The notes under the pieces: generated by a model
What the model was told of the DNA's origin: nothing
The model's database searches: none
What the model saw: only the letters and a program-made list of their open reading frames with translations
Position numbers and translations under genes: made by a program
DNA from: Oscillospiraceae bacterium
GTDB taxonomy: Bacteria > Bacillota > Clostridia > Oscillospirales > Oscillospiraceae
Length of the DNA stretch: 64,000 bases
Assembly (NCBI GenBank): GCA_902778285.1
Contig: CACYXC010000017.1
Location: forward strand, 1 to 64,000
Direction: 5' to 3'
In this document: piece by piece, positions 20,929 to 40,411 of the stretch
Position numbering within the stretch: the first letter of the stretch is position 1
Layout: each line of letters opens with the position of its first letter

Positions 20929-21352
20929 AGGGCGTGCAAGTTAGGGATACGACAGCCGCAAACAGGATGTTTTCGCGCCAGACTTCGTTGCGCGTACTCG
21001 GAATACATATCCAGTATTCCTGCGCCGCTCGCCTCGTCTGACACGAAAAGCTCTCTGTTTGCGGTGCAAAGCAGTTTTGCGAGAGTCATTTTTTGTTCAG
21101 GCAAAACAGAAAACACCGGGAATACTTCGTGTATTTCCGGTGTTTTCAGACTGTAGACAAACCCATGCTGCCGAAGTTTGACACGCATGGGGAGAGCGCG
21201 AGAGGGGATTGGTTATTCCCTCTCGCGATTGATATACTCAAGTCGACAGCTTGAAAACACCGGGAATACTTCGTGTATTTCCGGTGTTTTCTGTGAAGCA
21301 AGGGCGGAAAAGGGCCTCGCAAAACCTGTCGGCCCCCTAATTTGCACGCCCT
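20929..21352. mobile_element. Non-coding element with inverted ends, 424 bp
   Basis: The two ends are inverted copies: AGGGCGTGCAAGTTAGGG at 20929-20946 and the complement of AGGGCGTGCAAATTAGGG at 21335-21352, with further matching inward (CGACAG and a TTTTGCGAG motif). There is no coding frame inside. A family A element (21109-21291) is nested in it. It looks like a MITE; I cannot identify the target-site duplication. Confidence 0.6.
21109..21291 (-). mobile_element. Terminator-duplicating element, family A, copy 1
   Basis: Two identical 39-bp hairpin sequences (GAAAACACCGGG..., 21109-21147 and 21253-21291) bracket a 105-bp interior. The reverse complement of the interior starts AAGCTGTCGACTTGAGTAT and ends GTTTGTCTACAGTCT, matching copies at 26128-26352 (almost exactly, apart from a deletion of about 55 bases) and 40210-40411. 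The inner ends CAAGCTGTCGACAAA and CAGACTGTAGACAAA are imperfect inverted repeats of each other. Confidence 0.75.
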
Positions 21353-21474
21353 TTGAGCGTCTTTTCTTCATGAACCGGCTCAACCGCCGCGCGAGTCACT
21401 CCCCGTGACAGTCGCTGGATTCTCAGGCGGCGATCTGCTAAGATGAGGTCACAACAGACAAGGAGGACAACAAA

Positions 21475-22491
21475 ATGGAAATGGGAAAAGAGATCCGCCG
21501 CCTGCGCAATGCGCGCGGGCTGACCCAGGAGGCCCTCGCCGCCGCGCTGAACGTGACCGCGCAGACCGTCAGCAAATGGGAGTGCGGCAACAGCATCCCC
21601 GACGTGCAGCTGCTGCCGGAGATCGCCGTATACTTCGGCGTCAGCATCGACCAGCTCTTCGCCATGAGCCCGGAGCAGCAGATGGAGCGCATCGAGAATC
21701 ACATCTACGACCGGGGCATGTTTACCGAGGCCGAGGAGCGGCAGCTCGAGCAGCAGCTCGGCGTCTTCGCCGAGGATCCGGCTCTGGAGGGACAGGCGAA
21801 GCTCCTGCTGACCAAGCTCTACAACAACCAGGCCGAGCAGTACCGCCTGCTGGCCGTGGAGATGGGCAAGGAGGCCGTCGAGAAGACCGGCGGCGGCCAC
21901 GACGCCGTCAGCGAGCTGGCCAACGCCTGGGGCAGCTACATGCCCGACTGGAACGTGCGCAATCACCACGCGCTCATCGACTGGTTCAGCGATTACTGCC
22001 GCCGCCATCCGGACAACCGCGCCGCCCTGATGTGGCTGCTGGACAACCTCATCGACGACCGCCGCCTGACCGAGGCGCGGGAATGGCTGGAGAAGCTTGC
22101 CCGGATCGACAGCAGTTTCCGCACGCCCATGTACCGCTATCTGATCGCGCTCGCGGCGGGAGAGAAGGACGAGAGCGAAAAGCAGAAACGCGAGCTCGAG
22201 GCGCTCGCGGACAGCGAGTGGTGCTGCGCCCTGACCCTGGGTGACATCTGCACCCAGCGCCAGGAATACGACGAGGCGGTCGCGTGGTACCGCAGAGGCC
22301 AGCAGCTGCAACCCTCGCCGAAATTCACCGACAGCGCCACAAGCATCGCCCACATCTGTGAGATCCGAGGCGACAGGGAAGGCGCGATCGAGGCCTACCG
22401 GGAGGTCCTGCGCCTGCTGAAGGAGGACTGGGGCATCGTCAGCGGCGAGGAGCGCGAGGCGGTGGAGCGCGCCATTCGGAAGCTGCAGTGA
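21475..22491 (+). CDS. XRE-type regulator with TPR-like C-terminal domain
   Basis: A 338-aa protein. Residues about 5-60 form an HTH (MGKEIRRLRNARGLTQEALA, NVTAQTVSKWECGNSIPDVQ, YFGVSIDQLF). The rest is helical and repeat-like (RALIDWFSDYCRRHPDNRAALMWLLD, EYDEAVAWYRRGQQLQP), similar to TPR-containing transcription factors of Bacillota that respond to peptides or other ligands. AAGGAGG lies 8 bases ahead of the ATG. It stands alone between repeat-rich DNA and the M16C peptidase gene, which it may or may not control. Confidence 0.85.
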   Translation: MEMGKEIRRLRNARGLTQEALAAALNVTAQTVSKWECGNSIPDVQLLPEIAVYFGVSIDQLFAMSPEQQMERIENHIYDRGMFTEAEERQLEQQLGVFAEDPALEGQAKLLLTKLYNNQAEQYRLLAVEMGKEAVEKTGGGHDAVSELANAWGSYMPDWNVRNHHALIDWFSDYCRRHPDNRAALMWLLDNLIDDRRLTEAREWLEKLARIDSSFRTPMYRYLIALAAGEKDESEKQKRELEALADSEWCCALTLGDICTQRQEYDEAVAWYRRGQQLQPSPKFTDSATSIAHICEIRGDREGAIEAYREVLRLLKEDWGIVSGEEREAVERAIRKLQ

Positions 22492-22522
22492 GGCGCTGCC
22501 GCCTGCCGCAAAGCGCAGAGAT

Positions 22523-22562
22523 TGAAAAAAACGGCTTGACCCGTGCGGTCAGGCCGTTTTTT
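22523..22562 (+). terminator. Terminator after the XRE/TPR gene
   Basis: AAAAACGGCTTGACC pairs with GGTCAGGCCGTTTTT around a short loop, followed by T residues. Confidence 0.8.
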
Positions 22563-22618
22563 TCGCTCCCGGCGGGCACACTACGCTTGATACAGCTTTA
22601 CACAGCTTTGTTTTTTTC

Positions 22619-22647
22619 TTGACAGACAGGCGCCGCGCGCCTAAAAT
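22619..22647 (+). promoter_or_regulatory. Promoter of the M16C peptidase gene
   Basis: TTGACA (22619-22624) and TAAAAT (22642-22647) are 17 bases apart, 41 bases before the start codon. Confidence 0.8.
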
Positions 22648-22688
22648 GAGGTATCGCTATTTTTTATTGCAGGAGGAACAGGAATACG

Positions 22689-25600
22689 ATGAAAAAACTG
22701 CTGTCCGTTTTGCTTGCCCTCGCGCTGCTGCTGTCCGCGGGCGCCTTCGCCGCGCCGGGCCGGGCCTACGCCGAGGACGCGCCCGCGCTGCCCGCTTTGG
22801 GCGACACGGTCGAGGGCTTTGTGGTGAAGGATCTGCGCGACTTCCCGCTGGTCGGCGCCGAGATCGTGCTCTTCGAGCATGAGCGCACCGGCGCGCAGCT
22901 GGTGTACATCGCCAACAACGATCGGAACCGCGTCTTCGACCTGAGCTTCTTCACCCGGGCCATCGACAACACGGGCCTGCCCCATGTGTTTGAGCATGCC
23001 ACGCTGGACGGCTCCGAGAAGTACCCCTCCAAGGCGCTGTTCTTCAACCTCTCCTACCAGACCTACAACACCTTCATGAACGCCATGACCGGCGCGCTGT
23101 ATACCACCTACCCGGTGGCGAGCCTCTCCGAGGCGCAGCTGCTCAAGTATGCCGACTACTATACCGACAGCTGCCTGCACCCGATGATCCTCGAGGATGA
23201 GAGCATCTTCCGCGAGGAGGCCTGGCGCTACCGCCTGGCGGACGCGGAGGACGAGCTGTCCATTGAGGGCACGGTCTACTCCGAGATGCTGGGCGCCATG
23301 GATCTGACGAGCACGGCCTACAGCAATCTGCTGCGCGCCGCTTTCCCCGGCTCCACGATCGGCAATATCTCCGGCGGCGATCCGGCCTTCATCCCCGACA
23401 TGACCTGGGAATCTCTGCGCGACTATCACGAGCTGTACTACCACCCCTCCAACTGCTGCGCCTATCTCTACGGCCAGTTCGAGGACTACATCGCCTTCCT
23501 CAAGCTGCTGGACGAGGCCTTCGCGCCCTATGAAAAGCGCGAGTTCGACTTCACGGACGCGGACTATGTCCCGTTGACCGAGAGCGTCACCGATCTGCAG
23601 GCCTTCCCGGTGGAGGCCGGCTCCTCCGCCGACAACACCTCCGAAATCTTCTACGCCTTCGTCTGCCCCGGACTCAATCAGGACCCGCAGGAGGAGCTGG
23701 TGCTCAACACCCTGACCGACCTGCTGGTGGTCGACGCCTCGCCTCTGATGCAGGCGCTGAAGAAGGCGCTGCCCAGCGGACAGTTTGCGTCCTATATCGA
23801 GCTGGACGGGCAGGAAGACATGATCGTGGTCTACGGCAGCAACCTCAACCCCGATGACGCGGAGACCTTCCGCAGCACCGTGGACGAGGCGCTGGCCGGT
23901 CTTGCCGAGACCGGCTTCCCCCAGGAGCTGGTGGACGGCGTGATGTCCTCCCTGTCCCTGTCCATCAAGCTCACCGGCGAGAGCGAGCTCGTCGGCGAGC
24001 CGCTGATCGAGTCTCTCATCGGCTACTATGCCTCCACCGGCGAGCTCTACGGCTACATGGACTATGTGGACGCCATGGAGCAGATCGACGAGTGGAACGA
24101 GCAGGACCTCTACCGTGAGGCCATCCAGAACTGGCTGCTCGGCGCCGAAGTCACGGTCCTGAGCGCGACCTATCCCGAGCCCGGCCTGCGCGAGCAGCTG
24201 GACGAGGCCGAGGCGGCCCGCCTGGCCGAGGTCAAGGCCGGCATGAGCGAGGAGGAGCTGCAGGCTCTCGTCGAGCAGACCAACGCCGAGGACGAGCCTG
24301 ACGACGCCTCCGCCTATGTCGCCGCGCTGCAGGCGGTGACGGTCTCCTCCCTGCCCGAGGAGATCCGCCTCTACGACGTGGCCGAGAAGGAAGAGGACGG
24401 CGTGCGCTATATCGACGTCGCCGCCGATGTGGACGGCGTGGGCAACCCGATCCTGCTGCTGGACGCCTCCGCTCTGCCGCAGGAGGACATCCTGTGGTTC
24501 GCGCTCTACTGCAAGCTGCTCGGCGAGCTGGACACCGCCTCCTACACGCAGGAGGAGCTGTCCGTGCTGAGGACACGTTATCTCTACAACGGCCAGATCC
24601 GCCTCTCCATTGCGGAGGATCTGGAGAGCGGCGAGCTCTGCCCGCGTCTGCGCGCCGAGTGGATGTCCGCGGACGAGGATCTGGCTGCGGGCTACGATCT
24701 CGTCTATGAGATGCTCTACAACAGCGATTTCAGCGACGGCGAGCGACTGTCCGGCCTGATCACCAAGACCAAGGCCGCGCTCAAGAGCGACATCAACGGC
24801 GAGCCCTACCGCGCCGCGATCTTCCGCGCGCTGGGCTATTATTCCCCGCTCTACCGCTACTACAGCTACTTTAACTTCACGGATTTCTACAGCTTCCTTG
24901 AGCAGGTCGAGGCTATGGCCGCCGAGGATCCCGCCGCGGTGACGGCGAAGCTCGAGAGCATCCGCGATTACTTCCACAACCGCGACAAGGCCGTCGCCGT
25001 CTATGCCGGCAGCGAGGACGGTATCGCCGTCAACGCCCCGCTGGCCGCCGCCTTCCTCGGCAAGCTCGACAACACGCCGCGCGAGCCGGTCGCCTATGAG
25101 CTGCCGCAGCCCGCGAAGAACGAGGCGCTGATCCTTGACAGTACCGTCTCCTACAACGGCGTGGCCATCGACTTTGCGTCCCTCGGCCTCGAGGATTACA
25201 GCGGCGACATGAGCGCCGTGGCGAGCCTCGTCTCCGATGCCTACCTCTACCCGATGCTCCGCGATCAGTACGGCGCCTACGGTGTGCTCCATGACTTCAT
25301 GGAGGACTGCGGCCCCTATGTGGTCTCTTACCGCGACCCGAACATCGGCGAGACCTTCCGGGTCTATGAGGATCTGCCCGACTTCCTGACAGAGCTCGAG
25401 ATGGATCAGGAGGAGCTGGACGGCTACATCCTCTCCACTTACTCCCGCTATGCCGCCTCCCAGGGCGAGTTGAGCGGCGCCGCCGAGGCCGCCATGGACG
25501 CCGTGACCCACGACTCCCAGGAGAAGAAGCTCGACTATATGCGCGCGCTCAAGGCACTCACGCCCGAGGCGCTGCAGGACTACGCCGCGCTCTATGCGGC

Positions 25601-26108
25601 CATGATGAACGACGGCGTCCGCTTCACCACCGGCGGCGCCGGCGCGATCAACGCCAATGCCGAGCTCTACGACGCGATCCTCAATCCCTTCGGCTCCGTG
25701 GACAGCACGCAGGTCGAATTCAGCGACGCGACCGAGGACTACGAGCACTACGAGGCCGTGCGCTTCGTCTTCGAGGAGCTGCTGATGGCGCCCGCCGGTG
25801 AGGACGTCTTCGGCGTGGACGAGGACGCCACGGTCGGCGAGCTGGCCGGCATGCTCTACGCCCTGATCGGCGGCGATCCCGCCGCGCAGGACGAGGCGAT
25901 CGGGACCTTTGCCCAGTACGGCATCCTGCCGGGTGACATCACGGCCGACGCCGTGCTGACCGGCGCGGACGCCGACGCAATCTTCGCAAGCTTCAGTGCG
26001 GCAGTGGGCGTGCCCTACGCGCCGGTCGGCGCAGGGGACGAGGCCGTCACCCGCGGCGAGCTGGCCCAGCTCTTCCTGGACTACTACGACGCGCTGCCGG
26101 AGGAATAA
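22689..26108 (+). CDS. Exported M16C family zinc metallopeptidase with SLH-like tail
   Basis: A 1139-aa protein. Signal peptide in residues 1-28 (LLSVLLALALLLSAGAFA ... AYAED), then a PreP/falcilysin-like M16C core. The inverted zinc motif HVFEH is at residues 99-103 inside GLPHVFEHATLDGSEKYPSK, with FMNAMTGALYTTYPVAS after it and a candidate third ligand in TVYSEMLG near residue 198. M16C enzymes enclose and cut short peptides. About 130 extra residues at the C-terminus (from FSDATEDYEHYEAVRFVFEE) resemble S-layer homology repeats with AVTRGELAQLFLDYY at the end, so it may be held on the wall rather than secreted freely. Ribosome site AGGAGG is 12 bases away. Confidence 0.88.
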   Translation: MKKLLSVLLALALLLSAGAFAAPGRAYAEDAPALPALGDTVEGFVVKDLRDFPLVGAEIVLFEHERTGAQLVYIANNDRNRVFDLSFFTRAIDNTGLPHVFEHATLDGSEKYPSKALFFNLSYQTYNTFMNAMTGALYTTYPVASLSEAQLLKYADYYTDSCLHPMILEDESIFREEAWRYRLADAEDELSIEGTVYSEMLGAMDLTSTAYSNLLRAAFPGSTIGNISGGDPAFIPDMTWESLRDYHELYYHPSNCCAYLYGQFEDYIAFLKLLDEAFAPYEKREFDFTDADYVPLTESVTDLQAFPVEAGSSADNTSEIFYAFVCPGLNQDPQEELVLNTLTDLLVVDASPLMQALKKALPSGQFASYIELDGQEDMIVVYGSNLNPDDAETFRSTVDEALAGLAETGFPQELVDGVMSSLSLSIKLTGESELVGEPLIESLIGYYASTGELYGYMDYVDAMEQIDEWNEQDLYREAIQNWLLGAEVTVLSATYPEPGLREQLDEAEAARLAEVKAGMSEEELQALVEQTNAEDEPDDASAYVAALQAVTVSSLPEEIRLYDVAEKEEDGVRYIDVAADVDGVGNPILLLDASALPQEDILWFALYCKLLGELDTASYTQEELSVLRTRYLYNGQIRLSIAEDLESGELCPRLRAEWMSADEDLAAGYDLVYEMLYNSDFSDGERLSGLITKTKAALKSDINGEPYRAAIFRALGYYSPLYRYYSYFNFTDFYSFLEQVEAMAAEDPAAVTAKLESIRDYFHNRDKAVAVYAGSEDGIAVNAPLAAAFLGKLDNTPREPVAYELPQPAKNEALILDSTVSYNGVAIDFASLGLEDYSGDMSAVASLVSDAYLYPMLRDQYGAYGVLHDFMEDCGPYVVSYRDPNIGETFRVYEDLPDFLTELEMDQEELDGYILSTYSRYAASQGELSGAAEAAMDAVTHDSQEKKLDYMRALKALTPEALQDYAALYAAMMNDGVRFTTGGAGAINANAELYDAILNPFGSVDSTQVEFSDATEDYEHYEAVRFVFEELLMAPAGEDVFGVDEDATVGELAGMLYALIGGDPAAQDEAIGTFAQYGILPGDITADAVLTGADADAIFASFSAAVGVPYAPVGAGDEAVTRGELAQLFLDYYDALPEE

Positions 26109-26127
26109 GCGAAAACGATCAAAACCT

Positions 26128-26352
26128 GCGCGGGAGGCCGAAAGGCCTCCCGCGTCAAGCTGTCGACAAAGTGTCGACAGCTTGAAAATCAAAAATGAGA
26201 ACTCCCCAAAAAGTTCTCATTTTTGAGTATATCAATCGCGAGAGGGAATAACCGGGGGAATCTTCCTCTCGCGCTCTCCCCATGCGTGTCAAACTTCGGC
26301 AGCATGGGTTTGTCTACAGTCTGGCGCGGGAGGCCGAAAGGCCTCCCGCGTC
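26128..26352 (+). mobile_element. Terminator-duplicating element, family A, copy 2
   Basis: Two identical 29-bp copies of a hairpin (GCGCGGGAGGCCGAAAGGCC..., 26128-26156 and 26324-26352) flank a 167-bp interior. The interior starts with AAGCTGTCGAC-AAAGT-GTCGACAGCTT, carries a second hairpin (AAAAATGAGAACT and complement), a third around CGCGAGAGGGAATA, and ends GTTTGTCTACAGTCTG. The hairpin flanks would act as terminator for the M16C peptidase gene. Confidence 0.8.
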
Positions 26353-26493
26353 GCTGCTTTTACAGAAAATAATGATAACCGAGCCTGATTTTGACAACTA
26401 AAATGTGCCGCGGTTTGATTTTCCCCTGGCGCACATACTGTTTTTTGCGGACCAAGCGAACGCAGACAGAATTGCGAAGGGGAGCTATAGGAT

Positions 26494-27483
26494 ATGAAAA
26501 AGACGATATTGACGGCGCTGATCGCCCTTGCGCTGGCAGCCGCGGCGCCGACGGCCTTTGCCCGTGAGCTGGCGCTGGGCGGCCAGGTCGTGGGCATCCA
26601 GATCAGCACCGCGGGCGTGCTGGTGGCGGGCACCGGCGCGGTGGAGACCGGCGAGGGCAGCCGCTCGCCGGCGGAGGAGGCCGGCGTACACACGGGCGAC
26701 GTGATCGTGGAGCTGGCCGGTCGGAAGGTAAAGAGCGCGGGAGAGCTGATCTCGGCGGTGGCGGAGCTCCAGGGCGCGGACGCGGAGCTGACCGTACTGC
26801 GCGGCGGAAAGCCGCTGCTGCTGACGGTGAAGCCCATCCGGTCCAAGGAAAACCAGTGGATGCTGGGCATGTGGCTGCGCGACGGGATCTCCGGCATCGG
26901 CACGGTCACCTTCTGCGACCCGGCCACGGGGCTCTACGGAGCCCTGGGCCACAGCATCAGCGACTCCGACAGCGGAGCGATGCTTCCGATGGATGAGGGG
27001 AGCATCACCGAGGCGCAGATCGTCTCCATCAAGCCCGGCACCGCCGGCGCGCCCGGCGAGCTCAACGGCTCCGCCGATCCCGGGAAGGTGCTGGGCAGCA
27101 TCGAGCGCAACACCGAGCACGGCATCTACGGCCACATGAACCACGTCGGCGTCGGCCGTGTGGTGGAGACCGGGGAGATCCGTACCGGACCGGCCACGAT
27201 CCTGGCCACGGTGGACGAGGGGAAGACGAAGGAGTTCTCCGTCCGCGTCAGCCGGATCTACCGGGACGGCGACGGGGAGCACGTCATGCTCAGCGTGACC
27301 GACCCCGAGCTCTGCGCCCGCACCGGCGGCATCGTGCAGGGCATGAGCGGCAGCCCCATCCTGCAGGACGGGAAGCTGGTCGGCGCGGTGACGCATGTCT
27401 TCCTCTCCGACCCGAAGCGCGGCTACGGCATCAGCATCCGGGACATGCTCGACGACGCGCTCATCCTCGACGAGGCGGCATAA
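26494..27483 (+). CDS. spoIVB: SpoIVB-type serine peptidase
   Basis: A 329-aa protein: N-terminal signal/anchor helix (ILTALIALALAAAAPTAFA), a PDZ domain (about residues 50-110; AEEAGVHTGDVIVELAGRKV), and an S55 peptidase domain with GIGTVTFCDPATGLYGALGHSI (catalytic His) and QGMSGSPILQDGKLVGAVTHV (catalytic Ser). In Bacillus, SpoIVB is made in the forespore and cleaves SpoIVFA to activate sigma-K. It is shorter than the Bacillus protein (about 426 aa), mainly at the N-terminus. It supports the idea that this organism sporulates. Confidence 0.92.
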   Translation: MKKTILTALIALALAAAAPTAFARELALGGQVVGIQISTAGVLVAGTGAVETGEGSRSPAEEAGVHTGDVIVELAGRKVKSAGELISAVAELQGADAELTVLRGGKPLLLTVKPIRSKENQWMLGMWLRDGISGIGTVTFCDPATGLYGALGHSISDSDSGAMLPMDEGSITEAQIVSIKPGTAGAPGELNGSADPGKVLGSIERNTEHGIYGHMNHVGVGRVVETGEIRTGPATILATVDEGKTKEFSVRVSRIYRDGDGEHVMLSVTDPELCARTGGIVQGMSGSPILQDGKLVGAVTHVFLSDPKRGYGISIRDMLDDALILDEAA

Positions 27484-27587
27484 AGAAACGGGCGTGCCGC
27501 AAAACGCAGAAAAGAGGCGCAAACGGACGGTTTTGACGCAGGGGCGGGGCTCGGCCCCGCCCGGCGCAGGGCAAAGAAAACGTGCAG

Positions 27588-27640
27588 AGAAAATGTGAGG
27601 CGAATTCGCAGCATTGTACGAATTTGCCTCACATTTTCTT
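27588..27640. terminator. Terminator-like hairpin between spoIVB and the island
   Basis: GAAAATGTGAGGC and GCCTCACATTTTC form a long stem, extended by AATTCG and CGAATT further inside, around a 10-base loop. It can serve spoIVB (plus) and the recombinase gene (minus). A GC-rich motif (GGGGCGGGGC) of the dispersed type lies at 27541-27562. Confidence 0.7.
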
Positions 27641-27729
27641 TGAAAGGTCCTGTTTTTCTGCCGGGAGGGGCAAGGGCCTCCACCCGTAAGATAGTTTTAT
27701 CATCATTTGCAGGGACGGCATGGCATTGG

Positions 27730-29816
<2,087 letters not shown>

Positions 29817-32411: not shown

Positions 32412-32442
32412 AGTGCCACCAACTACCATTTCCAGTCGTTTC

Positions 32443-32787: not shown

Positions 32788-32792
32788 ATTCG

Positions 32793-33300
32793 TTACTCCA
32801 TCGGCTTTATCGTCGCTTCAATAAACGCAATCTCATCGGGCGTCAGATGATATTTTGCATACAGTTCCGTGTCTGTCCACGGCTTTGAAAAATCTTGAAG
32901 CGGAACGAATCTATAGGTTTTGTTTGGCAAGTCCTGTGAAATCCTACATGCCAAAACCAGTATCCTAAAGAATTTCGTCTTCAAATAGGTTATAAAACTA
33001 TGGGCCTCAATTTCATTCTTGAACGGGGCGTAAAGATATGTCTGTGAACATACAGAGTTATTTCCCGCGAATTCAGGTTGACCGACTATTTGATGGGGGA
33101 AATCTTCTCCTGCGCCATACGCCTTCGGTATAAGAACCTTGCATTTCTCGATATCCTGAGCATTTTTCGAAATATCAGTTTTTCTTACATATGCAGTTTT
33201 TCTAACAGCCCTATCAAGATAGAAGAGTTTTACGTCGTGGCCTGCTGCTTTTCTATTAAAGATTGTAATTGGATTCTTTTTACTTGTCGCCGGATTGGTT
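32793..33300 (-). pseudogene. C-terminal remnant of an Eco57I-type restriction-modification enzyme
   Basis: The minus strand encodes, in one open frame without a proper start, TPFGIPTNPA ... LIPKAYGAGEDFPHQIVGQ ... SVCSQTYLYAPF ... YLKTKFFRILVLA ... FVPLQDFSKPWTDTELYAKY ... FIEATIKPME. This is the typical end of the large bifunctional restriction-modification proteins; the methylase and nuclease parts are missing. It overlaps, in another frame, the end of the helicase gene, so the two were joined by a deletion near 33300. Only the last 63 residues (from the ATG at 32984) could be a small protein. Confidence 0.7.
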
Positions 33301-34582
33301 GGGATTCCAAACGGAGTAGAGCAGAAAACGCAAAAGACACGCCGCTATCGCGCAGCTCTTTCAGCCGATGACGAGAAGATTCATTTGGATTAAAAGCAAA
33401 ACGGATCATCTGGGGGAATCCATAATATGGGTTCTCCCATTCTTCTTTTGGCTCGTCTGCGGTGTTGTTCTCTTTGATCCATGCCTCCTGGTCTTTAACG
33501 ATGTCGGTAAACTGGTAGAAAGCGATAATGTCATCCTTGGAAAATTCGCTGCCCATTAAAATGCGGTAAGGTGTGCCAGAGAGATGAAGCCTTATGCGGG
33601 CATCAAGGAATTTCATTTGCTCTTCTGCTTCGGCAGCTTCAACGAAGTCATCCACATCGCCACCATGCTGTTTGCCTGCCGCGCGCAGAACGCGTCCATA
33701 CTTCTCGGCTCGGGCGCCAAAATGCGTCTCGTCTACGATCAGAAGGTCAATTTCACGGCCAAAGATTTCCCGATGTTTCTCTTTGATCGTGTCTCCCTGC
33801 AAATCCTGTAAGGTCAGAAAAACAACAACTCTTCTGCCTGAATCAAGTATATCCTTGATTATACTTTCGCTTGAAAGCAGCTGTTCGCCTGTAAGAAAAG
33901 CATAATCAGCAAATCTTACATGGCTTTCAACAGTCTTTTTCCACTCTTCTTTTACATCGGCTTTTGCGGATACAATCACCACGATGCCGGCATTCATTTC
34001 AGTGGCACAGTACATGGACGTGAAGGATTTACCGAACCGCATGACAGCATACATCAGTAGATTTGTTCTCCCAGCGTCTACAGCTGCCTTGAACTGTCGT
34101 ATGGTTTTGTCTTGGTTGGGACGCGGAGGATAGGTCTCTGTGCGTTCATATGTATGAGTTTCCGGCAAACCGGTTTCTGCGCTGTAAAACTGGTATTTGC
34201 CAGTGTTTTCATCGAAATCCTGTTGAATATCCTCAACGGCCTCAGCAATGTCAAGCGCTGACGCTTCCTTGAAAAACTCTCTGGAATAGTAAATTCCCTG
34301 TTCTATATTGGCGGGAAGCAATCTGGTACGATGTCGCTCTCCCTCTAGGAAACTGTGCACGGCAAAATCGCGGAAGTAAACATCGTCACTTACTTTCGCA
34401 ATTTGATCGTATTCCTTTTGAAGATCCGGAAAATGCTCACGCCACTCCTGCAACCGAACAGCCACAGGACGGTAGGTGTCACCGACTTTGAGATAATTCG
34501 GAATGGTGTTCGTGGTAAATGCGTAGATGTGAGGATCGACTCTGCCGGTAATCAATTGATCCAATACGGTTAAATCTCTCAT
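33230..34582 (-). CDS. DEAD/DEAH helicase-nuclease of a restriction-like system, truncated
   Basis: A 450-aa product beginning MRDLTVLDQLITGRVDPHIYAF, which has an N-terminal GIY-YIG-like look (AFTTNTIPNYLKVGDT), followed by a helicase core: motif I in AVMRFGKSFTSMY, motif II VDETHFG, motif III LSGTPYRIL. The second RecA-like half is absent; the frame runs out in LESQPIRRQVKRIQ, which is out-of-frame sequence of the fused methylase remnant. Members of this family are usually much longer. Start at 34582 overlaps the stop of the upstream gene (ATGA). Probably inactive as a complete restriction factor. Confidence 0.7.
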   Translation of the reverse strand: MRDLTVLDQLITGRVDPHIYAFTTNTIPNYLKVGDTYRPVAVRLQEWREHFPDLQKEYDQIAKVSDDVYFRDFAVHSFLEGERHRTRLLPANIEQGIYYSREFFKEASALDIAEAVEDIQQDFDENTGKYQFYSAETGLPETHTYERTETYPPRPNQDKTIRQFKAAVDAGRTNLLMYAVMRFGKSFTSMYCATEMNAGIVVIVSAKADVKEEWKKTVESHVRFADYAFLTGEQLLSSESIIKDILDSGRRVVVFLTLQDLQGDTIKEKHREIFGREIDLLIVDETHFGARAEKYGRVLRAAGKQHGGDVDDFVEAAEAEEQMKFLDARIRLHLSGTPYRILMGSEFSKDDIIAFYQFTDIVKDQEAWIKENNTADEPKEEWENPYYGFPQMIRFAFNPNESSRHRLKELRDSGVSFAFSALLRLESQPIRRQVKRIQLQSLIEKQQATT

Positions 34583-35565
34583 ATCCTCGCTCCGTTCTTC
34601 AGCAGTGAGACGAACTTCACCTTTTTGTTCTCTTTCCAGTCCATGATCATGCAATAGATTCCTGTGTGTAACAGGGGATCATTCTTTGCACACCCCTCAC
34701 AAGGACGTTTTTCCGGCTCGTCATCGAAGAGCTGAAGCTGCCCGCTGTCCGTATCCTTACAGCTGTCGGGAATCACGTACTTAAGCCCATCCATCTGCCA
34801 AATGTTCCACGACAATATCTCTGCTATACTGCGCAGATCATCCGTATCCGGTTCTTTTTTAAAGCGCGCAATATAATAATCAACATAGGACAGCAGCAGA
34901 TTCTCTCTGGCAAGCAGCACATTATCCCCCTGCCAATCAAAGCCATATACGCTCTGGAATGCGATAGTTGCCCATTCACGCCACGTCTCTTCTGTTTCGG
35001 CGTTCTCCATGACAACTCGCATTTTGCGATCCAGCAGACCGATCCGCTGGGCAAGATCTATGGTATCCCCTGTGACCGTATCATAGCGGCTTACCAAATA
35101 AGGCGCTTCCCCACATGTGATCTCCAGGCGGACATCTCGAACATAGTCCTCCCACGTTTTTCCGTCGGGCGTTGGAAATGCAATTTTGCCCTCCGTGGCA
35201 GTCCAACGCTTTTCGTGTTCTGTGTTAAACACATTTTCTGCGCCAAACCACGCATTATCAACCAGATTGTTCTGTTTGTTGCAAACCCATGAGGGCGTAA
35301 AGACTTCCGCTTTTTGCTTGATGCGTTCAACCTGCTCTTTTTTTGACTTCTCCACTCGAGGCTTTACAACATTGCCGTTATAGCCGATGACGGACAACAC
35401 TTCTATATAATCATGCCACTGAAAGCCGACTCCTTTATGGGCATAGTTATCCGTCGCCCAGATAATGTTTTTGCCTGATGAATGATCCTTCAGTAGAATC
35501 GCAAGCAACTCATGATCGCGGCGAAATAGATAGTTTTCTTTTATATCAATTTGATTCTTGTCCAT
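34579..35565 (-). CDS. Restriction endonuclease subunit M-like protein
   Basis: A 328-aa protein starting MDKNQIDIKENYLFRRDHEL. It has AEVFTPSWVCNKQNNLVDNAW, which recalls the FTP motif at the start of N6-adenine methylases, and EITCGEAPYLVSRYDTVTGD, which may be a variant of the SAM-binding motif I. I see no NPPY catalytic motif, so methylation activity is doubtful. Its ATG overlaps the stop of the ATPase gene and its stop overlaps the helicase start, so all three genes are translationally coupled. Database entries I recall under this name have the same layout. Confidence 0.65.
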   Translation of the reverse strand: MDKNQIDIKENYLFRRDHELLAILLKDHSSGKNIIWATDNYAHKGVGFQWHDYIEVLSVIGYNGNVVKPRVEKSKKEQVERIKQKAEVFTPSWVCNKQNNLVDNAWFGAENVFNTEHEKRWTATEGKIAFPTPDGKTWEDYVRDVRLEITCGEAPYLVSRYDTVTGDTIDLAQRIGLLDRKMRVVMENAETEETWREWATIAFQSVYGFDWQGDNVLLARENLLLSYVDYYIARFKKEPDTDDLRSIAEILSWNIWQMDGLKYVIPDSCKDTDSGQLQLFDDEPEKRPCEGCAKNDPLLHTGIYCMIMDWKENKKVKFVSLLKNGARI

Positions 35566-36761
35566 CACATTCCCTTTAACAGCCAATCGGCTACATCTAC
35601 GACCTGAACGCCCTCATATTGGTATGCCTCCTGGCGGGTGCGCGTGAGAATCATTTTCGGGTAGGCGTCCTTAATCTTCAATAGCGGATCTACCTCGCGC
35701 TGGAATGTATCGGGATCATCAATGCTGCTGGCAACCTGAATATATAGCTTTTCATTGCGCTTGATGGCAACAAAGTCTATTTCTTTCTTATACAGCACAC
35801 CTGCATACAGCTCGTAGCCGCGGCGCAACAACTCGATGGCCACGATGTTTTCAATCATTCGGCCATAGTCTGCGTTCTTCGTCCCTAGCTTGGCATACTT
35901 GAAAGAGTGATCGCTGAGATAGTATTTATCGTTAGAGGCAAGATAGCGTTTGCCCTGAATATCATATCTTCTGACCTTATAGAAAGCAAAGGCGTTACAA
36001 AGGTACTTGATATAGGCGCTGATCGTGCGGTCGTTTGTCTTGACTTGCTCGCTGGTAAAGGCCGCCGCCACGCTGCGGGTGGAGGTCAGATTGGAAATGT
36101 TGTCGATCAGGAAATCGCAGAGGCGCTCCATCAGTGGCATGTTGCGGATCTTATATTTTTTCTGGATATCCCGGACGATCAGCGTGTTGAACACGTCGGA
36201 AATATAGTCATACTTCGCTTCGGGCGTCTTATAAAGGTAGGAGCCGGACATGCCGCCCTCTTGAATATAGCGAGTGAATGCTGCGTACTGATCTGTCAGC
36301 TCATAGTACTGCATGAACTCGCCGAACGAGAAAGGATAAACTTCAATCTCAAAGGTGCGCCCGGTAAACAGCGTTGCCAGGTCACTGCTCAGTAGGAAAG
36401 CGTTGGAGCCGGTGATATAGATATCATATTTCTCGGAGGCGTGCAGACTATTGATTGCCTTCTCAAAGCCCTCACACATCTGGACTTCGTCAATGAAAAC
36501 AAAGTTGTTTTTGCCGGCGATATACGCGCTCTCAATATAGTGGTTCAACGCATGATACTCCGCCAGGCTCTCATATGAATTCAGGTTGAAATTGATGTGG
36601 ATGATATTTGCGTCAGGATCATTCGCCCGCACATAGGTCATAAAGGATTCCAACAGCTTGGACTTGCCGCTACGTCGGACGCCTGTAATGACCTTGATAT
36701 CCGGGGTACCCATTACTTCTTTCAGCTTGTTCAAATAGAAGTCTCGTTCGATAAGTCGCAC
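35565..36761 (-). CDS. AAA_14 / DUF4143 ATPase
   Basis: A 398-aa protein. The N-terminal P-loop ATPase has Walker A GVRRSGKSK (about residues 27-35), Walker B FVFIDEVQ, and the sensor YITGSNAFLLSSDLATLFTGR, typical of AAA_14. The C-terminal DUF4143 part (GRMIENIVAIELLRRGYELYAG, KEIDFVAIKRNEKLYIQVA) resembles a PD-(D/E)xK fold, with Gln where the second acidic residue is often found. Proteins of this type are widespread and poorly understood; some act with toxins or defence genes. Here it is the first gene of a coupled three-gene set. GAGGTGAGA precedes the start. Confidence 0.88.
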   Translation of the reverse strand: MRLIERDFYLNKLKEVMGTPDIKVITGVRRSGKSKLLESFMTYVRANDPDANIIHINFNLNSYESLAEYHALNHYIESAYIAGKNNFVFIDEVQMCEGFEKAINSLHASEKYDIYITGSNAFLLSSDLATLFTGRTFEIEVYPFSFGEFMQYYELTDQYAAFTRYIQEGGMSGSYLYKTPEAKYDYISDVFNTLIVRDIQKKYKIRNMPLMERLCDFLIDNISNLTSTRSVAAAFTSEQVKTNDRTISAYIKYLCNAFAFYKVRRYDIQGKRYLASNDKYYLSDHSFKYAKLGTKNADYGRMIENIVAIELLRRGYELYAGVLYKKEIDFVAIKRNEKLYIQVASSIDDPDTFQREVDPLLKIKDAYPKMILTRTRQEAYQYEGVQVVDVADWLLKGM

Positions 36762-36939
36762 AGAATCTCACCTCGTTGGTATTCTACCATATCTATTTCG
36801 CAAAATCAAGAATTAAACAAAATTGCGAAACAGCGCGATTAAGAAAGCATTTGTAAATAAAAGAGAAAGGTATGATCCCATTCTTTCGAAAAAAGAAACA
36901 ACTTGCACTCCGCTTAGCATTTTTACTATGTCAAAGACA

Positions 36940-36979
36940 AAGAAGCAAACTTGTACTGTAAAGTGCAAGTTTGCTTCTT
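36940..36979. terminator. Hairpin between folA and the island
   Basis: AAGAAGCAAACTTG (36940-36953) and its exact complement (36966-36979) form a 14-bp stem. It probably terminates folA (minus strand) and may also mark the right edge of the acquired region, since composition becomes GC-rich again from about 37030. No gene is seen in 36762-37122. Confidence 0.6.
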
Positions 36980-37122
36980 CAAAATCCAATCCTGTCAGAC
37001 AGCTACCAAATCTTTTTGGCTTCAAAACTCTCTTATGGGTGTTGGCACAAGCCCCTCCCCTACGCTGTGAGAGCGGCGTTTCTGCGCGTATCTGCGCCGT
37101 TCCTCTCCCGGGGGGTACCGGA

Positions 37123-37620
37123 TCAGCCTGCCGCCGACGCCCGCTCATAGGTGCAGAAGCAATAGCGCAGGCCGTTTTCCTCCAGCCAGCCGCCCTGCTC
37201 GGTGCAGACCCAGTCGGGCAGCGTGTCCAGATCGGGGAAGAAACTGTCCGAGTGGGGAGCGAGATCAATTTTTGTGATGTATACCTTCGCCAGGTGGGGG
37301 AAGAACTGCCTGTAAACGCTGGCGCCGCCGATGACCAGGCAGCGCTCCTGCCGCGCCGCGGCCGCCAGCGCCTCCTCGGTGGAGTGCACCACCTCGGCGC
37401 CCTCGATCTCGAGCGCCTGCCGGGTGACGACGATGTTGTGCCGCCCCTTGAGGGGCCTGCCGCCGGGAAAGTCCTCCATCGTGCGGCGGCCGACGATCAC
37501 CGCCGCGTCCCGGGTCACTTCGCGGAAATGCGCCCGGTCGGCCCGGAGCACCACGGGCTGGGTGCCGCCGGCGCCGATGCCCCAGTCGGCGTATACCGCC
37601 ACGATCGCTTCCAGTTCCAT
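37123..37620 (-). CDS. folA: Dihydrofolate reductase
   Basis: A 165-aa enzyme that reduces dihydrofolate to tetrahydrofolate with NADPH. Starts MELEAIVAVYADWGIG (substrate-site Asp/Trp region), with IVGRRTMEDFPGGRPLKGRHNIVVTR (NADPH site) and CLVIGGASVYRQFFPHLAKVYITKID. GAGGTGAAG lies just upstream of the ATG at 37620. It follows thyA by 10 bases, so it renews the dihydrofolate that thymidylate synthase makes. Confidence 0.93.
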   Translation of the reverse strand: MELEAIVAVYADWGIGAGGTQPVVLRADRAHFREVTRDAAVIVGRRTMEDFPGGRPLKGRHNIVVTRQALEIEGAEVVHSTEEALAAAARQERCLVIGGASVYRQFFPHLAKVYITKIDLAPHSDSFFPDLDTLPDWVCTEQGGWLEENGLRYCFCTYERASAAG

Positions 37621-37630
37621 GCTCTTCACC

Positions 37631-38461
37631 TCATACCGCCACGGGGATCGTGTGCCTGAATTCGGAGTACTCATAACCCTCCATGCGGAAGCTGTCGCGC
37701 GTGAAGGCATAGAAGTCCCGGACCTCCGGGTCGATGAGGAATTTCGGCGCGGGCTTCGGCGGATTGGCGATGATCTCCTCGATCGCCGGCACATGGCGGT
37801 CGTAGATGTGCGCGTCCGCGATCACGTGCACGAATTCGCCCGGCTCGAAGCCGGAGACCTGCGCCATCATCATCGTCAGCACCGCGTACTGCACCACGTT
37901 CCAGTTGTTGGCGGCCAGCATGTCCTGGCTGCGCTGGTTCAAAATGGCGTTGAGTCTGTTGCCCGAGACGTTGAAGGTCATCGAGTAGGCGCAGGGGTAG
38001 AGCGCCATCTCGCTGAGGTCGGCGAAGGTGTAGATATTGGTCATGATGCGGCGGGAGGCGGGGTTGTTCTTCAGATCCCACAGCACCTTGTCCACCTGGT
38101 CCATGTCGCCCTGAGGATAGTGGTGCTTCACGCCGAGCTGGTAGCCGTAAGCCTTGCCGATGGAGCCGTTCTCGTCCGCCCAGGCGTCCCACACGCGGGT
38201 GCGCAGATCGTGCACGTTGTTGCTCTTCTTCTGCCAGATCCACAGCAGCTCGTCGATGGCGGACTTCCAGTAGGTGCGGCGGATGGTCAGGATCGGGAAT
38301 TCCTCCGAAAGGTCGTAGCGGTTGACGATGCCGAATTTCTTGACCGTATGGGCCGGGGCGCCGTCCTCCCAGCGGGGGCGCACCTCCCGGTCGGTGTCCC
38401 AGACGCCGTTGTCCAGAATATCCCGGCAGTTTTGGATAAAGATCTCGTCTGCTCTGCTCAT
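37631..38461 (-). CDS. thyA: Thymidylate synthase
   Basis: A 276-aa ThyA-type enzyme that methylates dUMP to dTMP using methylene-tetrahydrofolate. Landmarks: RRTYWKSAIDELLWIWQKKSN, GSIGKAYGYQLG, the catalytic Cys in ALYPCAYSMTFNV, NQRSQDMLAANNWNVVQYAVLT, and HVIADAHIYDRHV. The ATG at 38461 follows GGGAGG. First gene of the thyA-folA operon. Confidence 0.96.
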   Translation of the reverse strand: MSRADEIFIQNCRDILDNGVWDTDREVRPRWEDGAPAHTVKKFGIVNRYDLSEEFPILTIRRTYWKSAIDELLWIWQKKSNNVHDLRTRVWDAWADENGSIGKAYGYQLGVKHHYPQGDMDQVDKVLWDLKNNPASRRIMTNIYTFADLSEMALYPCAYSMTFNVSGNRLNAILNQRSQDMLAANNWNVVQYAVLTMMMAQVSGFEPGEFVHVIADAHIYDRHVPAIEEIIANPPKPAPKFLIDPEVRDFYAFTRDSFRMEGYEYSEFRHTIPVAV

Positions 38462-38497
38462 GTGCGGCGAGCCTCCCTCTGTTTGTTGTCCTTCCGT

Positions 38498-38527
38498 ATT
38501 GTACCACAGGCACCGCCCCGCGCGCAA
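38498..38527 (-). promoter_or_regulatory. Probable thyA-folA promoter
   Basis: On the minus strand TTGCGC (38522-38527) and TACAAT (38498-38503) are 18 bases apart, 36 bases ahead of the thyA start and divergent from dpaA. Confidence 0.55.
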
Positions 38528-38555
38528 TAGAATAGAATGACCCGGAGGTGGTGCT

Positions 38556-39416
38556 ATGCGATATGCCGTTGTCGGCGGGGACCGGCGCTCGGCCCTGCTG
38601 GCGGAAATGCTGCAGCGGGAAGGGCACCGGGTGCACAGCTTTGCGCTGGAAAAGGCGGAGCTGCCCGCCGGGATAGCGCGGGACAGCACGCTGCAGGCCT
38701 GCACATACGGGGCCGACTGTGTGCTCCTGCCCACGCCCGCCGAGAGAGGCGGGCTTTTGTATGCGCCGCTGGGCCTTGCCGCTCCGCCCATGGACGAGGT
38801 GATCGGCGCGCTCTGGCCGGGCGCGCTGGTGATCGGCGGGGGCTTTGCCGCCGCGACGGTCGAGCGGGCGCTGCGGGAAAAGCTCCGCATCGAGGATCTG
38901 ATGCGGCGGGCGGATTTCCTGCAGGCGAATGCCGCCATCACGGCCGAGGGCGCGATCGGCGTCCTGCTGCGCGAGAGCGAGAAGACCCTTCTCGGCAGCC
39001 GATGCCTCGTCGCGGGCTGGGGGCGGATCGGCAAGCTGCTGACCCTGCGCCTGTCCGCGCTGGGCGCGTATGTCACGGCCGCCGCCCGCAGGCGGGCGGA
39101 CCGCGCGGAGGCCGAGGCGCTGGGGCTGCGCGCGCTGGATTACGGGCAGCTGGAGAGCATCGCCGGAGAGCTGGATTTCGTGGTCAACACCGTCCCCGCA
39201 CGGGTGCTGAGCGACGCGCTGCTCTGCTGCCTGCCGGGGGATGCGCTGCTGCTGGAGCTGGCCTCCCCGCCGGGCGGCTTCGATCCGCTGCTGGCGCAGA
39301 ACATAGGCCTGCGCGCGCTCACGGCGCCGGGGCTGCCGGGAAAGAGCGCGCCGGCCTCGGCGGCCGCCCTGCTCAAGCGCACGGCGGCGCAGATCATGCA
39401 GGAACAGGAGGAATAA
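38556..39416 (+). CDS. dpaA: Dipicolinate synthase subunit A
   Basis: A 286-aa protein (SpoVFA). It begins MRYAVVGGDRRSALLAEML, has a Rossmann NAD(P)-binding motif in LVAGWGRIGKLLTLRLSALG (about residues 150-170) and a D-isomer dehydrogenase-like C-terminal part (ELDFVVNTVPARVL, LLELASPPGGFD). With DpaB it makes dipicolinic acid, which fills the spore core with calcium. GGAGGT precedes the start. Directly followed by dpaB (one base apart). Confidence 0.92.
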   Translation: MRYAVVGGDRRSALLAEMLQREGHRVHSFALEKAELPAGIARDSTLQACTYGADCVLLPTPAERGGLLYAPLGLAAPPMDEVIGALWPGALVIGGGFAAATVERALREKLRIEDLMRRADFLQANAAITAEGAIGVLLRESEKTLLGSRCLVAGWGRIGKLLTLRLSALGAYVTAAARRRADRAEAEALGLRALDYGQLESIAGELDFVVNTVPARVLSDALLCCLPGDALLLELASPPGGFDPLLAQNIGLRALTAPGLPGKSAPASAAALLKRTAAQIMQEQEE

Positions 39417-39417
39417 C

Positions 39418-39993
39418 ATGGAGAAGAAACGGCTGGGGGTCGCGCTCTGCGGCTCCTACTGCACCTATGAAAAGCTCTTCGCGGGCCTGCCCGCGCTCGC
39501 GGAGCGCTACGAGCTCGTCCCCATCATGAGCGACACCGCCGCCGAGACGGATACGCGCTTCGGCTCGGCGGCGGGGAACATCCGGCGGCTCATGGAGCTG
39601 ACGGGCAGGCCCGTGATCACGACGATCGCCGAGGCGGAGCCGATCGGCCCGAAGGCGCAGCTCGACGCGCTGCTGATCGCGCCCTGCACGGGCAACACCC
39701 TCGCAAAGCTCGCCCACGGTGTCAGCGACAGCGCCGTGACCATGGCGGCCAAGGCGCATCTGCGAAACGGCAGGCCCGTCGTGATCGCCTTTTCCACCAA
39801 CGACGGGCTCTCCGGCTCGGCGGAAAACATCGGGCGGCTCCTGAATCGGAAAAACTATTATTTTGTCCCCTTCGGGCAGGACGACGCGGAGAAGAAGCCC
39901 TGCTCCCTGCAGGCGGACTTCACGCTGCTCGCCGACACGGTGGAGGCCGCCCTGTCGGGCAGGCAGCTCCAGCCCGTGCTCAGGGAGTATTGA
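39418..39993 (+). CDS. dpaB: Dipicolinate synthase subunit B
   Basis: A 191-aa flavoprotein-like subunit (SpoVFB), with VALCGSYCTYEKLFAGLPAL, DALLIAPCTGNTLAKLAHGVSDSAVTMAAKAHLRNGRPVVIAFSTNDGLSGSAENIG, and FVPFGQDDAEKKPCSLQADF. It works with DpaA in the last step of dipicolinate synthesis in the mother cell. The pair supports a sporulating lifestyle. Note that many Clostridia lack this operon and use EtfA instead. Confidence 0.93.
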   Translation: MEKKRLGVALCGSYCTYEKLFAGLPALAERYELVPIMSDTAAETDTRFGSAAGNIRRLMELTGRPVITTIAEAEPIGPKAQLDALLIAPCTGNTLAKLAHGVSDSAVTMAAKAHLRNGRPVVIAFSTNDGLSGSAENIGRLLNRKNYYFVPFGQDDAEKKPCSLQADFTLLADTVEAALSGRQLQPVLREY

Positions 39994-40209
39994 GAACGCA
40001 GCATTAAGCCTCGGCGTTTGGGAGGCGGAGAAGGCGTTTCACGCGCTCTCAGGACGATGCGGCGGGTCCGCAGGCATCTGCGGATTCGCCGTTTGTTTTT
40101 GATATATGAAAACCCGTACCGCGCGGGCGGCTGATAGCCGCCCGCAGACAGAGGGAAACGAATCACGCGCGAAAAAGCAGACAACAGAGACCGCCGGAAG
40201 CGGCAAAAC

Positions 40210-40411
40210 AGGCAGGGAGCTTTATGCTCCCTGCCCCAAGCTGTCGACAAAGTGTCGACAGCTTGAGCGGCAAAAATGGGAACTTCTGAAAAAGCTCCCA
40301 TTTTTGCACAGATTGTACCGCGAAAGGGGATTACCTCTCCCCATGCGAGTCCGACTTGTTCTGTATGGGTTTGTCTACAGTCTGAGGCAGGGAGCTTTAT
40401 GCTCCCTGCCC
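40210..40411 (+). mobile_element. Terminator-duplicating element, family A, copy 3
   Basis: Two identical 27-bp hairpins (AGGCAGGGAGCTTTATGCTC..., 40210-40236 and 40385-40411) flank a 148-bp interior that opens CAAGCTGTCGAC-AAAGT-GTCGACAGCTTG and ends GGGTTTGTCTACAGTCTG, the same ends as copies 1 and 2. The inner part has diverged but keeps an analogous hairpin (CAAAAATGGGAAC and near-complement). It lies in the 477-base gap between dpaB and rluD. Confidence 0.8.

What the first reader, a model, noticed from the sequence alone, without database searches (positions are those of the whole stretch)
21109..40411. A small element family that sits between two identical copies of a terminator hairpin
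Three loci (21109-21291, 26128-26352, 40210-40411) share an interior with ends CAAGCTGTCGAC and GTTTGTCTACAGTCTG, which are imperfect inverted repeats of each other. At every locus the interior is flanked by two perfect copies of a hairpin, but the hairpin itself is different each time (39, 29 and 27 bp). The simplest reading is a MITE-like element that targets intrinsic terminators and duplicates the whole hairpin on insertion, so the host gene keeps a terminator. Target duplications of this size and of variable length are unusual. Two interiors also hold a GTCGAC-AAAGT-GTCGAC palindrome.
Basis: partly seen in the sequence, partly recalled or inferred. Interest (0 to 1): 0.88.

Follow-up and report, generated by a model that had tools for sequence, protein, structure and literature searches.

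The report
Mini-transposons that duplicate terminator hairpins
This bacterial genome carries about a hundred copies of a tiny mobile DNA element that sit in hairpins at the ends of genes, nearly all of the examined ones between two copies of the same hairpin; they are likely moved by an IS1182-family transposase predicted to act on the folded hairpin itself, so that the gene would keep its stop signal.

Summary
The right-end motif occurs 137 times in the 2.43-Mb host draft genome (up to 2 mismatches; reversed control 0). Of 84 evaluable copies, 79 lie between two copies of a site-specific hairpin. The repeat is 21-44 bp, centred on the palindrome in 67 of 76 and A...T-terminated in 65 of 76. 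None of 69 lies between divergent genes. Of 79 orthologous loci without the MITE ends, 78 lack a doubled hairpin; the other holds a second element type. A full-length IS1182-family relative with matching ends exists (1,637 bp, 507-aa transposase); ends of such an IS lie at ten host contig edges, two pairs with identical hairpins. Of 80 named IS1182-type loci, 42 show 18-39-bp repeats, 37 of them symmetric palindromes. Hairpin targeting by this family is in print, but IS1272 deletes or replaces the hairpin; whole-hairpin duplication was drawn there only as a possibility. Joining at the 5' feet of a DNA cruciform is inferred.

The parts
21110..21146 (.).
   Evidence: (L028)
21147..21253 (-). Site 1, MITE (107 bp); right end 21147-21162, left end 21242-21253; lacks the second half of the terminal palindrome and the middle hairpin
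21254..21290 (.). Site 1, hairpin copy at the element's left end, identical to 21110-21146
   Evidence: (L028)
26128..26155 (.). Site 2, hairpin copy 1 (28 bp)
   Evidence: (L029)
26156..26323 (+). Site 2, MITE (168 bp); left end 26156-26167, right end 26308-26323
26156..26184 (.). Site 2, terminal palindrome CAAGCTGTCGAC-AAAGT-GTCGACAGCTTG
26324..26351 (.). Site 2, hairpin copy 2, identical to copy 1
   Evidence: (L029)
40210..40236 (.). Site 3, hairpin copy 1 (27 bp)
   Evidence: (L030)
40237..40384 (+). Site 3, MITE (148 bp); left end 40237-40248, right end 40369-40384
40237..40265 (.). Site 3, terminal palindrome CAAGCTGTCGAC-AAAGT-GTCGACAGCTTG
40385..40411 (.). Site 3, hairpin copy 2, identical to copy 1
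   Evidence: (L030)
40414..40431 (-). Site 3, exact end motif of a second element family (GACTTTTTTGACAAGCTG), 2 bp outside hairpin copy 2
   Evidence: L374

Best explanation
These are small non-autonomous transposons (MITEs) that lie between two copies of a terminator-like hairpin, and they are likely mobilised by an IS1182-family transposase that is predicted to join both element ends to the 5' feet of an extruded DNA cruciform, so that gap repair would copy the whole hairpin to both sides. Shown by sequence: the ends, the copy number, the site-specific hairpin repeats, their centring on the palindrome, the A...T terminal pair, the lack of doubled hairpins at orthologous sites without an element, and an IS1182-family element with matching ends that also lies between duplicated hairpins. 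Inferred: that this IS moves the MITEs in trans; that the target is recognised as a folded four-way junction and not as linear duplex; that repair of the hairpin-long single-stranded gaps makes the second copy. In a cruciform the two attacked phosphates would lie next to each other although they are 21-44 nt apart in sequence, which would explain a repeat length that follows each hairpin. The second hairpin keeps the host's downstream T-rich stretch, so the gene would keep a terminator; this would make insertion nearly harmless and allow about a hundred copies.
For: 137 right ends in the host, reversed control 0. 79 of 84 evaluable copies with a duplicated hairpin; right flanks swapped between loci pass in 12 of 830 tests. 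Repeats of 21-44 bp (median 28), 59 of 76 identical, 67 of 76 exactly centred on the palindrome, 65 of 76 A...T. Gene context: 39 of 69 between convergent genes, 15 and 9 co-directional in the two orientations, 6 unclear, 0 divergent. Of 79 orthologous loci without the MITE ends 78 have no doubled hairpin; independent insertions, each with its own doubled hairpin, in G006 and G021 (murC-like) and G033 (26128 site). Autonomous partner: L087, 1,637 bp, 507 aa, NF033551 IS1182 family 444.9 bits against a cut-off of 270. First 15 bases of the IS left end in the host (CAGACTGTAGACAAA) are identical to the MITE right end read inwards. Left and right IS ends at host contig edges carry identical hairpins in two pairs, C70/C61 and C14/C16; same in G062. 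42 of 80 named IS1182-type loci have 18-39-bp repeats, 37 symmetric palindromes, 32 A...T.
Against: No transposition was observed and no transposase match is in the host assembly, only IS ends at contig edges; of these, two left ends (C10, C73) and two right ends (C35, C31) have no partner with the same hairpin. 5 of 84 MITE copies lack the pattern (two with scaffold gaps, one joined to another MITE, one between two different hairpins, one in an open frame with a 6-bp repeat), and L017, set aside by my edge rule, has only the 3' half of the hairpin on its left. A decayed MITE in G090 has a hairpin on its left side only (L197). 16 of the 58 named IS loci with both ends and flanks have no repeat; 14 of these 16 have a hairpin at each end, but two different ones. 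Not every IS1182 element behaves so: PMC3196728 lists 4-bp direct repeats for ISCaa15. A duplex-reading mechanism with a variable stagger is not excluded.
Confidence: 0.8

Rival explanations
1. The transposase reads the palindrome as ordinary duplex DNA, for instance as a symmetric dimer on the two stem bases, and cuts with a stagger that varies with the palindrome, without any cruciform.
For: The A...T terminal pair (65 of 76) is a symmetric sequence preference that a duplex-reading dimer could give; no call tests folding in the cell.
Against: The stagger would have to range from 18 to 44 bp, and the repeat stays centred on the palindrome in 67 of 76 copies; by eye the targets share no sequence apart from being palindromic with A/T at the feet.
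Confidence: 0.15
2. Stem-loop replacement as proposed for IS1272: the element replaces the target hairpin and the flanking repeats arise in another way.
For: Same transposase family, by NCBIfam for our IS and by the papers for IS1272; same kind of target.
Against: Both hairpins are kept in 79 of 84 MITE copies and in 42 of 80 named IS loci. Of the five MITE exceptions only L112 (6-bp repeat) and L124 (joined to another MITE) have no hairpin beside them, and neither looks like a replaced hairpin.
Confidence: 0.03
3. Insertion is indifferent to hairpins and selection keeps only copies in which a terminator happened to be preserved, or the repeats were made later by recombination.
For: Elements are absent between divergent genes (0 of 69), which purifying selection could also give.
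Against: Repeat boundaries coincide with the stem base, and the repeat follows the hairpin length from site to site; autonomous IS in other Firmicutes show the same.
Confidence: 0.03
4. Assembly artefact: repeated hairpins created by misassembly of metagenome contigs around a short repeat.
For: The host record is a draft in 76 contigs, 10 of 94 copies were set aside at contig or locus edges and some have N gaps.
Against: The flanking hairpins differ from site to site; the same pattern occurs in isolate sequences, for example 7 of 8 Romboutsia timonensis loci (the eighth, L304, has two different hairpins), Clostridium neonatale and Chakrabartyella piscis; the C. cadaveris repeat is a less regular palindrome.
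Confidence: 0.02
5. The transcript's RNA hairpin, not DNA, guides insertion, as in a retroelement or an RNA-guided element that targets terminators.
For: Targets are at gene ends and look like RNA terminators.
Against: Both orientations relative to a single gene are found (15 against 9); the elements have terminal inverted repeats shared with a transposon of a DDE family; one copy sits in an open frame with a 6-bp repeat.
Confidence: 0.03

Closest known systems
IS1272 / TnSha1 (IS1182 family), stem-loop-replacing transposition (PMC5678879, PMC4923244; passages read)
   Same: Transposase of the same family by NCBIfam and by the papers; targets hairpins of unrelated sequence, several of them transcription terminators.
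   Different: IS1272 and TnSha1 replace or partly delete the hairpin and leave no target duplication; here the whole hairpin is present on both sides.
Pathway b of the cruciform model in PMC5678879 (Fig 13 legend and discussion passage read)
   Different: Drawn there as a possibility and, in the passages read, not assigned to an element; the data here fit it in one MITE family and many IS1182-type IS.
IS1182 family as catalogued by Siguier and colleagues (not read; cited in PMC5678879 and PMC4923244)
   Same: Some members are said to target palindromes; I recall, from no call, that ISfinder lists direct repeats of up to about 60 bp for the family.
   Different: PMC5678879 says no detailed data were given; the MITEs, their numbers and the hairpin-length rule did not come up in my ten paper searches.
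ISCaa15 of Amoebophilus asiaticus (IS1182 family, PMC3196728, table passage read)
   Same: IS1182 family, 18-bp inverted repeats.
   Different: Listed with 4-bp direct repeats in two copies, so not every family member shows long hairpin repeats.
IS elements that target REP palindromes (PMC1525189, search listing only)
   Same: Insertion into palindromic extragenic DNA.
   Different: A defined repeat family as target; here the target hairpins differ from site to site.
Class C group II introns (recalled, no call)
   Same: Insert next to intrinsic terminators.
   Different: Retroelements without hairpin duplication or terminal inverted repeats.

Membership tests
IS1182 family (autonomous partner L087/L224) | Transposase matches the curated IS1182 model above cut-off | tested here: met
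   NF033551 444.9 bits, cut-off 270; PF13751, PF05598 and PF01609 also match
IS1182 family (autonomous partner L087/L224) | DDE catalytic triad | tested here: inconclusive
   D147, D304 and E431 are invariant in a 4-sequence alignment and Pfam DDE domains match; the catalytic role is my reading and was not tested
IS1182 family (autonomous partner L087/L224) | Terminal inverted repeats | tested here: met
   CAGCCTGTAGACAAA and TTTGTCTACGGTCTG at the ends of L087
IS1272-type stem-loop replacement | Target hairpin lost, no target duplication | tested here: not met
   Hairpin duplicated in 79 of 84 MITE copies and repeats in 42 of 80 named IS loci
MITE | Short, too small for a transposase, with terminal inverted repeats | tested here: met
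   74 elements of 103-472 bp, median 133; ends of the window copies
MITE | Many similar dispersed copies with target duplications | tested here: met
   137 right ends; 79 of 84 with duplicated hairpin; 49 of 74 copies 100% identical to another copy over at least half their length
MITE | Ends shared with an autonomous element | tested here: met
   15 of 15 terminal bases shared between the MITE right end and the host IS left end; the MITE left end agrees with it at 13 of 16 (sequences, counted by hand)
MITE | Mobilisation in trans by that transposase | not testable with these tools
   Needs a transposition assay
Intrinsic terminator (target) | Stem-loop followed by a T-rich stretch at a gene's 3' end | tested here: met
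   At least 4 T in the 8 nt after the second hairpin in 55 of 76; 0 of 69 between divergent genes; termination itself not measured
Known RNA family | Match to an Rfam model | tested here: not met
   No match at gathering score in window 20500-41000

The most novel reading that the evidence does not exclude
A whole branch of IS1182-type transposons, with MITEs riding on it, measures its target duplication by DNA structure: the enzyme attacks the two 5' feet of an extruded cruciform, so the duplication is exactly one hairpin whatever its length. Because the host's terminator is copied and never lost, terminators become a safe harbour in which such elements can reach about a hundred copies in one small genome.
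Probability: 0.6. Interest if true: 0.85.

Novelty: new variant of a known kind. Interest (0 to 1): 0.72.

Why it matters
Most DDE transposons have a target duplication of nearly fixed, short length set by the spacing of the active sites (established knowledge). Here the length follows the hairpin over 18-44 bp, which points to a target recognised by structure and makes the question of cruciform-directed strand transfer directly testable. It gives many natural examples of the duplication pathway that was only drawn as a possibility for IS1272, and it suggests how a mobile element can fill a compact genome while leaving gene ends working. It also warns annotators that two identical terminators around 100-500 bp can be the footprint of such an element.

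Tried and rejected
PF13751 in the host genome: no match, and no protein-level copy of the L087 transposase at E <= 1e-30. A DNA search with the whole IS then found IS ends at ten contig edges. Other PF13751 loci of the genus (L051-L080) screened for exact direct repeats of 18 bp or more, 800-4000 bp apart: only L067 and L068 of 30 rang. L054 and L059 are IS1182 by NCBIfam too and did not ring, so the trait may be limited to a branch; this was not tested on a tree. First gene-orientation script was fooled by long antisense frames in GC-rich DNA and was replaced by a codon-usage version trained on 28 window frames; the calls are rough, and many distances of 0 there are frames left open up to the hairpin. 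Orthologues of site 1 and site 3 in relatives had no MITE, but their hairpins could not be matched one to one with the window's. PDB by sequence: no relative. Paper searches: 10 of 10 used; no listed paper was about a MITE or IS between duplicated terminator hairpins, but lists were capped, the library lacks most subscription journals, and ISfinder was not on hand. Passages of PMC3196728, PMC4438569 and PMC8868234 were also read and gave nothing on hairpin duplication.

Rows dropped before counts: 10 of 94 MITE copies at contig or locus edges, among them L017, which was de-duplicated to an instance near the end of L016; by eye its left hairpin is only the 3' half. 3 of 79 (L015, L156, L160) had no intact left end for the geometry; 69 of these had flanks long enough for gene calls; 74 elements were compared with each other. 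About 43 of the 137 end matches were not fetched as MITE copies, and some of the 137 are IS ends. The 12 of 830 control passes were not checked one by one; neighbouring copies in one locus are the likely cause. It also called some murC-like relatives single-hairpin; G033 and G073 there have a second, different hairpin, so the tested statement is now that no hairpin is doubled.
Full report
What is in the window. Three short elements of 107, 168 and 148 bp lie at 21147-21253 (minus strand), 26156-26323 and 40237-40384. Each begins CAAGCTGTCGAC and ends GTTTGTCTACAGTCTG, and each lies between two identical copies of a hairpin: 37, 28 and 27 bp, a different hairpin at each site.

Copy number. The host genome (G000, 2.43 Mb in 76 contigs, 89% complete) has 90 exact and 137 near copies (up to 2 mismatches) of the right end, and none of the reversed control. 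Some of the 137 are ends of a full-length IS. Of 101 genus genomes including the host, 34 have an exact copy. Copies look young: 49 of 74 are 100% identical to another copy over at least half their length. Interiors differ mainly by loss of whole hairpin modules (by eye on 30 loci).

The duplicated hairpin. I examined 94 copies (90 exact, 4 with one mismatch). Ten were set aside as edge cases; of the 84 left, 79 have the right-flanking sequence repeated before the left end. Right flanks swapped between loci pass the same test in 12 of 830. The five exceptions are two scaffold gaps (L027, L135), one copy followed directly by another MITE (L124), one copy between two different hairpins (L131), and one in an open frame with a 6-bp repeat AGTTCT at the centre of a short palindrome (L112). 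L017, lost to the edge rule, has only the 3' half of the hairpin on its left.

Geometry. In 76 copies the repeat is 21-44 bp (median 28); 59 are identical on both sides. In 67 of 76 the repeat is exactly centred on the palindrome, and in 65 of 76 it begins with A and ends with T. The repeat is therefore the hairpin, closed by an A-T pair, whatever its length. On both strands this places the join just 5' of an A at the foot of the stem. Pairing can run on beyond the repeat where A and T tracts flank it.

Target class. In 69 copies with usable flanks, 39 lie between convergent genes, 15 and 9 lie after one gene in the two element orientations, 6 are unclear on one side, and 0 lie between divergent genes (rough codon-usage calls). 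After the second hairpin at least 4 of 8 bases are T in 55 of 76; before the first at least 4 of 8 are A in 50 of 76. These are the marks of intrinsic terminators. The window has 19 other perfect hairpins of 9 bp or more outside the three loci (shuffles 1-3), so with the three target sites roughly one strong hairpin in seven is occupied.

Empty and independently filled sites. I compared 86 orthologous loci in the host and relatives at five places (rnfB-like, murC-like and the three window sites). Of 79 without the MITE ends, 78 have no doubled hairpin; the other, G033 at the 26128 site (L357), holds a second element type between two copies of its hairpin. Of 7 with end-like motifs, 4 have a doubled hairpin: the host at two places, G006, and G021, which again holds the second type (CAGACTGTCAAAAAA ... 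TTTTTTGACAAGCTG). The other three are a decayed MITE in G090 with a hairpin on one side (L197), an IS left end at a contig edge in G051 (L164), and a motif match in L180 that was not followed up. One-hairpin sites that read clearly as the counterpart are G033 after the rnfB-like gene and G051 at the 26128 site. The hairpins of relatives are not identical in sequence to the host's, so these are orthologous terminators and not unmutated empty sites. Gene names here are my reading of the translations.

The autonomous partner. L087 (G073, contig 52, the same contig as CACXAQ010000052.1 of Ruminococcaceae bacterium RUG11086 by length and match) is a 1,637-bp element with a 507-aa transposase that matches NF033551, IS1182 family, at 444.9 bits against a cut-off of 270. 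Relatives at 86-97% identity with left end CAGACTGTAGACAAA lie against hairpins in G018, G030, G051 and G062. In G062 the left end (contig 75) and the right end (contig 37) carry the same 27-bp hairpin, as expected if the assembly broke inside one insertion. The host has no transposase match but has IS ends at contig edges: five left ends at 92% identity and five right ends at 84-85%. Two left-right pairs have identical hairpins (C70/C61, C14/C16); a third (C62/C64) has the same stem but another loop; two left ends (C10, C73) and two right ends (C35, C31) have no partner. The first 15 bases of the host's IS left end are identical to the MITE right end read inwards. L087 itself has a different hairpin at each end.

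Beyond the genus. Of 459 relatives found in public genomes, the best 80 loci were taken. 42 have direct repeats of 18-39 bp (median 25) at the element ends; 37 of the 42 are symmetric palindromes and 32 begin with A and end with T. They include isolate sequences of Romboutsia timonensis (7 of 8 loci), Clostridium neonatale, C. cadaveris (a less regular palindrome) and Chakrabartyella piscis. For 13 loci an end was not found, and 9 have too little flank. 16 have both ends and flanks but no repeat; 14 of these have a hairpin at each end, two different ones. Such mixed flanks are what intramolecular transposition or recombination between copies would leave (inference), and the same is seen in L131, L224, L225 and L227.

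Mechanism. Shown: ends, targets, repeats, undoubled hairpins in relatives, and a transposase family that shares ends and outcome. Inferred: the IS moves the MITEs; both 3' ends attack the 5' feet of a cruciform, where the two phosphates are close in space but a hairpin apart in sequence; repair copies the hairpin. The first hairpin loses its T-rich stretch and the second keeps it, so termination would move to the second hairpin. No transposition, folding or termination was measured.

Prior art. PMC4923244 (passages read) reports that TnSha1 and IS1272 target hairpins, several of them terminators, and delete part of the target without duplication. PMC5678879 (passages read) reports stem-loop replacement by IS1272 and draws whole-stem-loop duplication as pathway b, a possibility. 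Both say that Siguier and colleagues noted palindrome targeting in the IS1182 family; PMC5678879 adds that no detailed data were given. PMC3196728 lists an IS1182 member with 4-bp direct repeats. I recall, from no call, that ISfinder lists long direct repeats for the family. The ten paper searches listed no work on hairpin-duplicating MITEs or IS1182 elements, but the library lacks most subscription journals. I therefore rate it a new variant of a known kind.

Noticed in passing
window 40412-40431: Two bases outside the second hairpin of site 3 lies an exact end of a second element family (CAGCTTGTCAAAAAAGTC). The host has 7 matches of that end with up to 2 mismatches (reversed control 3); L373, L375 and L377 of the 7 are flanked by a duplicated hairpin.
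   Followed up: partly
L377 (G000 contig 35, about 130): One terminator appears to hold both a second-family element and an IS1182 right end: hairpin, element, hairpin, IS end.
   Followed up: partly
L246, L253, L260, L266, L277, L281, L285, L288, L295, L297, L299, L304, L309, L310: Full-length IS1182-type elements with a hairpin at each end but two different hairpins; possibly adjacent deletions or recombination between copies.
   Followed up: partly
L112 (G000 contig 28, near 8246): A MITE inside an open frame with a 6-bp repeat AGTTCT in the small palindrome GGAAGTTCTTCC: the shortest target seen.
   Followed up: partly
L048 and L049 (G023, G045): Right halves of MITEs joined at the same position to an open frame that I take, from recall, for a TnpV-like transposon protein: likely a second transposon inserted in the MITE.
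   Followed up: no
window 53810-53854 and 54280-54324; 17898-17919 and 18001-18022: Paired hairpins repeated within a few hundred bases, unrelated to the MITE ends.
   Followed up: no
window 8873-8902 and 45658-45686: Two long hairpins that share TCAATTG...CAATTGA and the preceding CGAGTATC: perhaps another repeat family.
   Followed up: no
window 63646-63683: Part of a repeat (CGAAGGATCTC ... CTTCGCTTCGCTCAGAATGACAG) whose like is also seen beside a MITE in L001 and inside the element in L047.
   Followed up: no
L054 and L059: Another group of NF033551 transposases in the same genus without exact 18-bp direct repeats, so hairpin duplication may be limited to a branch of the family.
   Followed up: no
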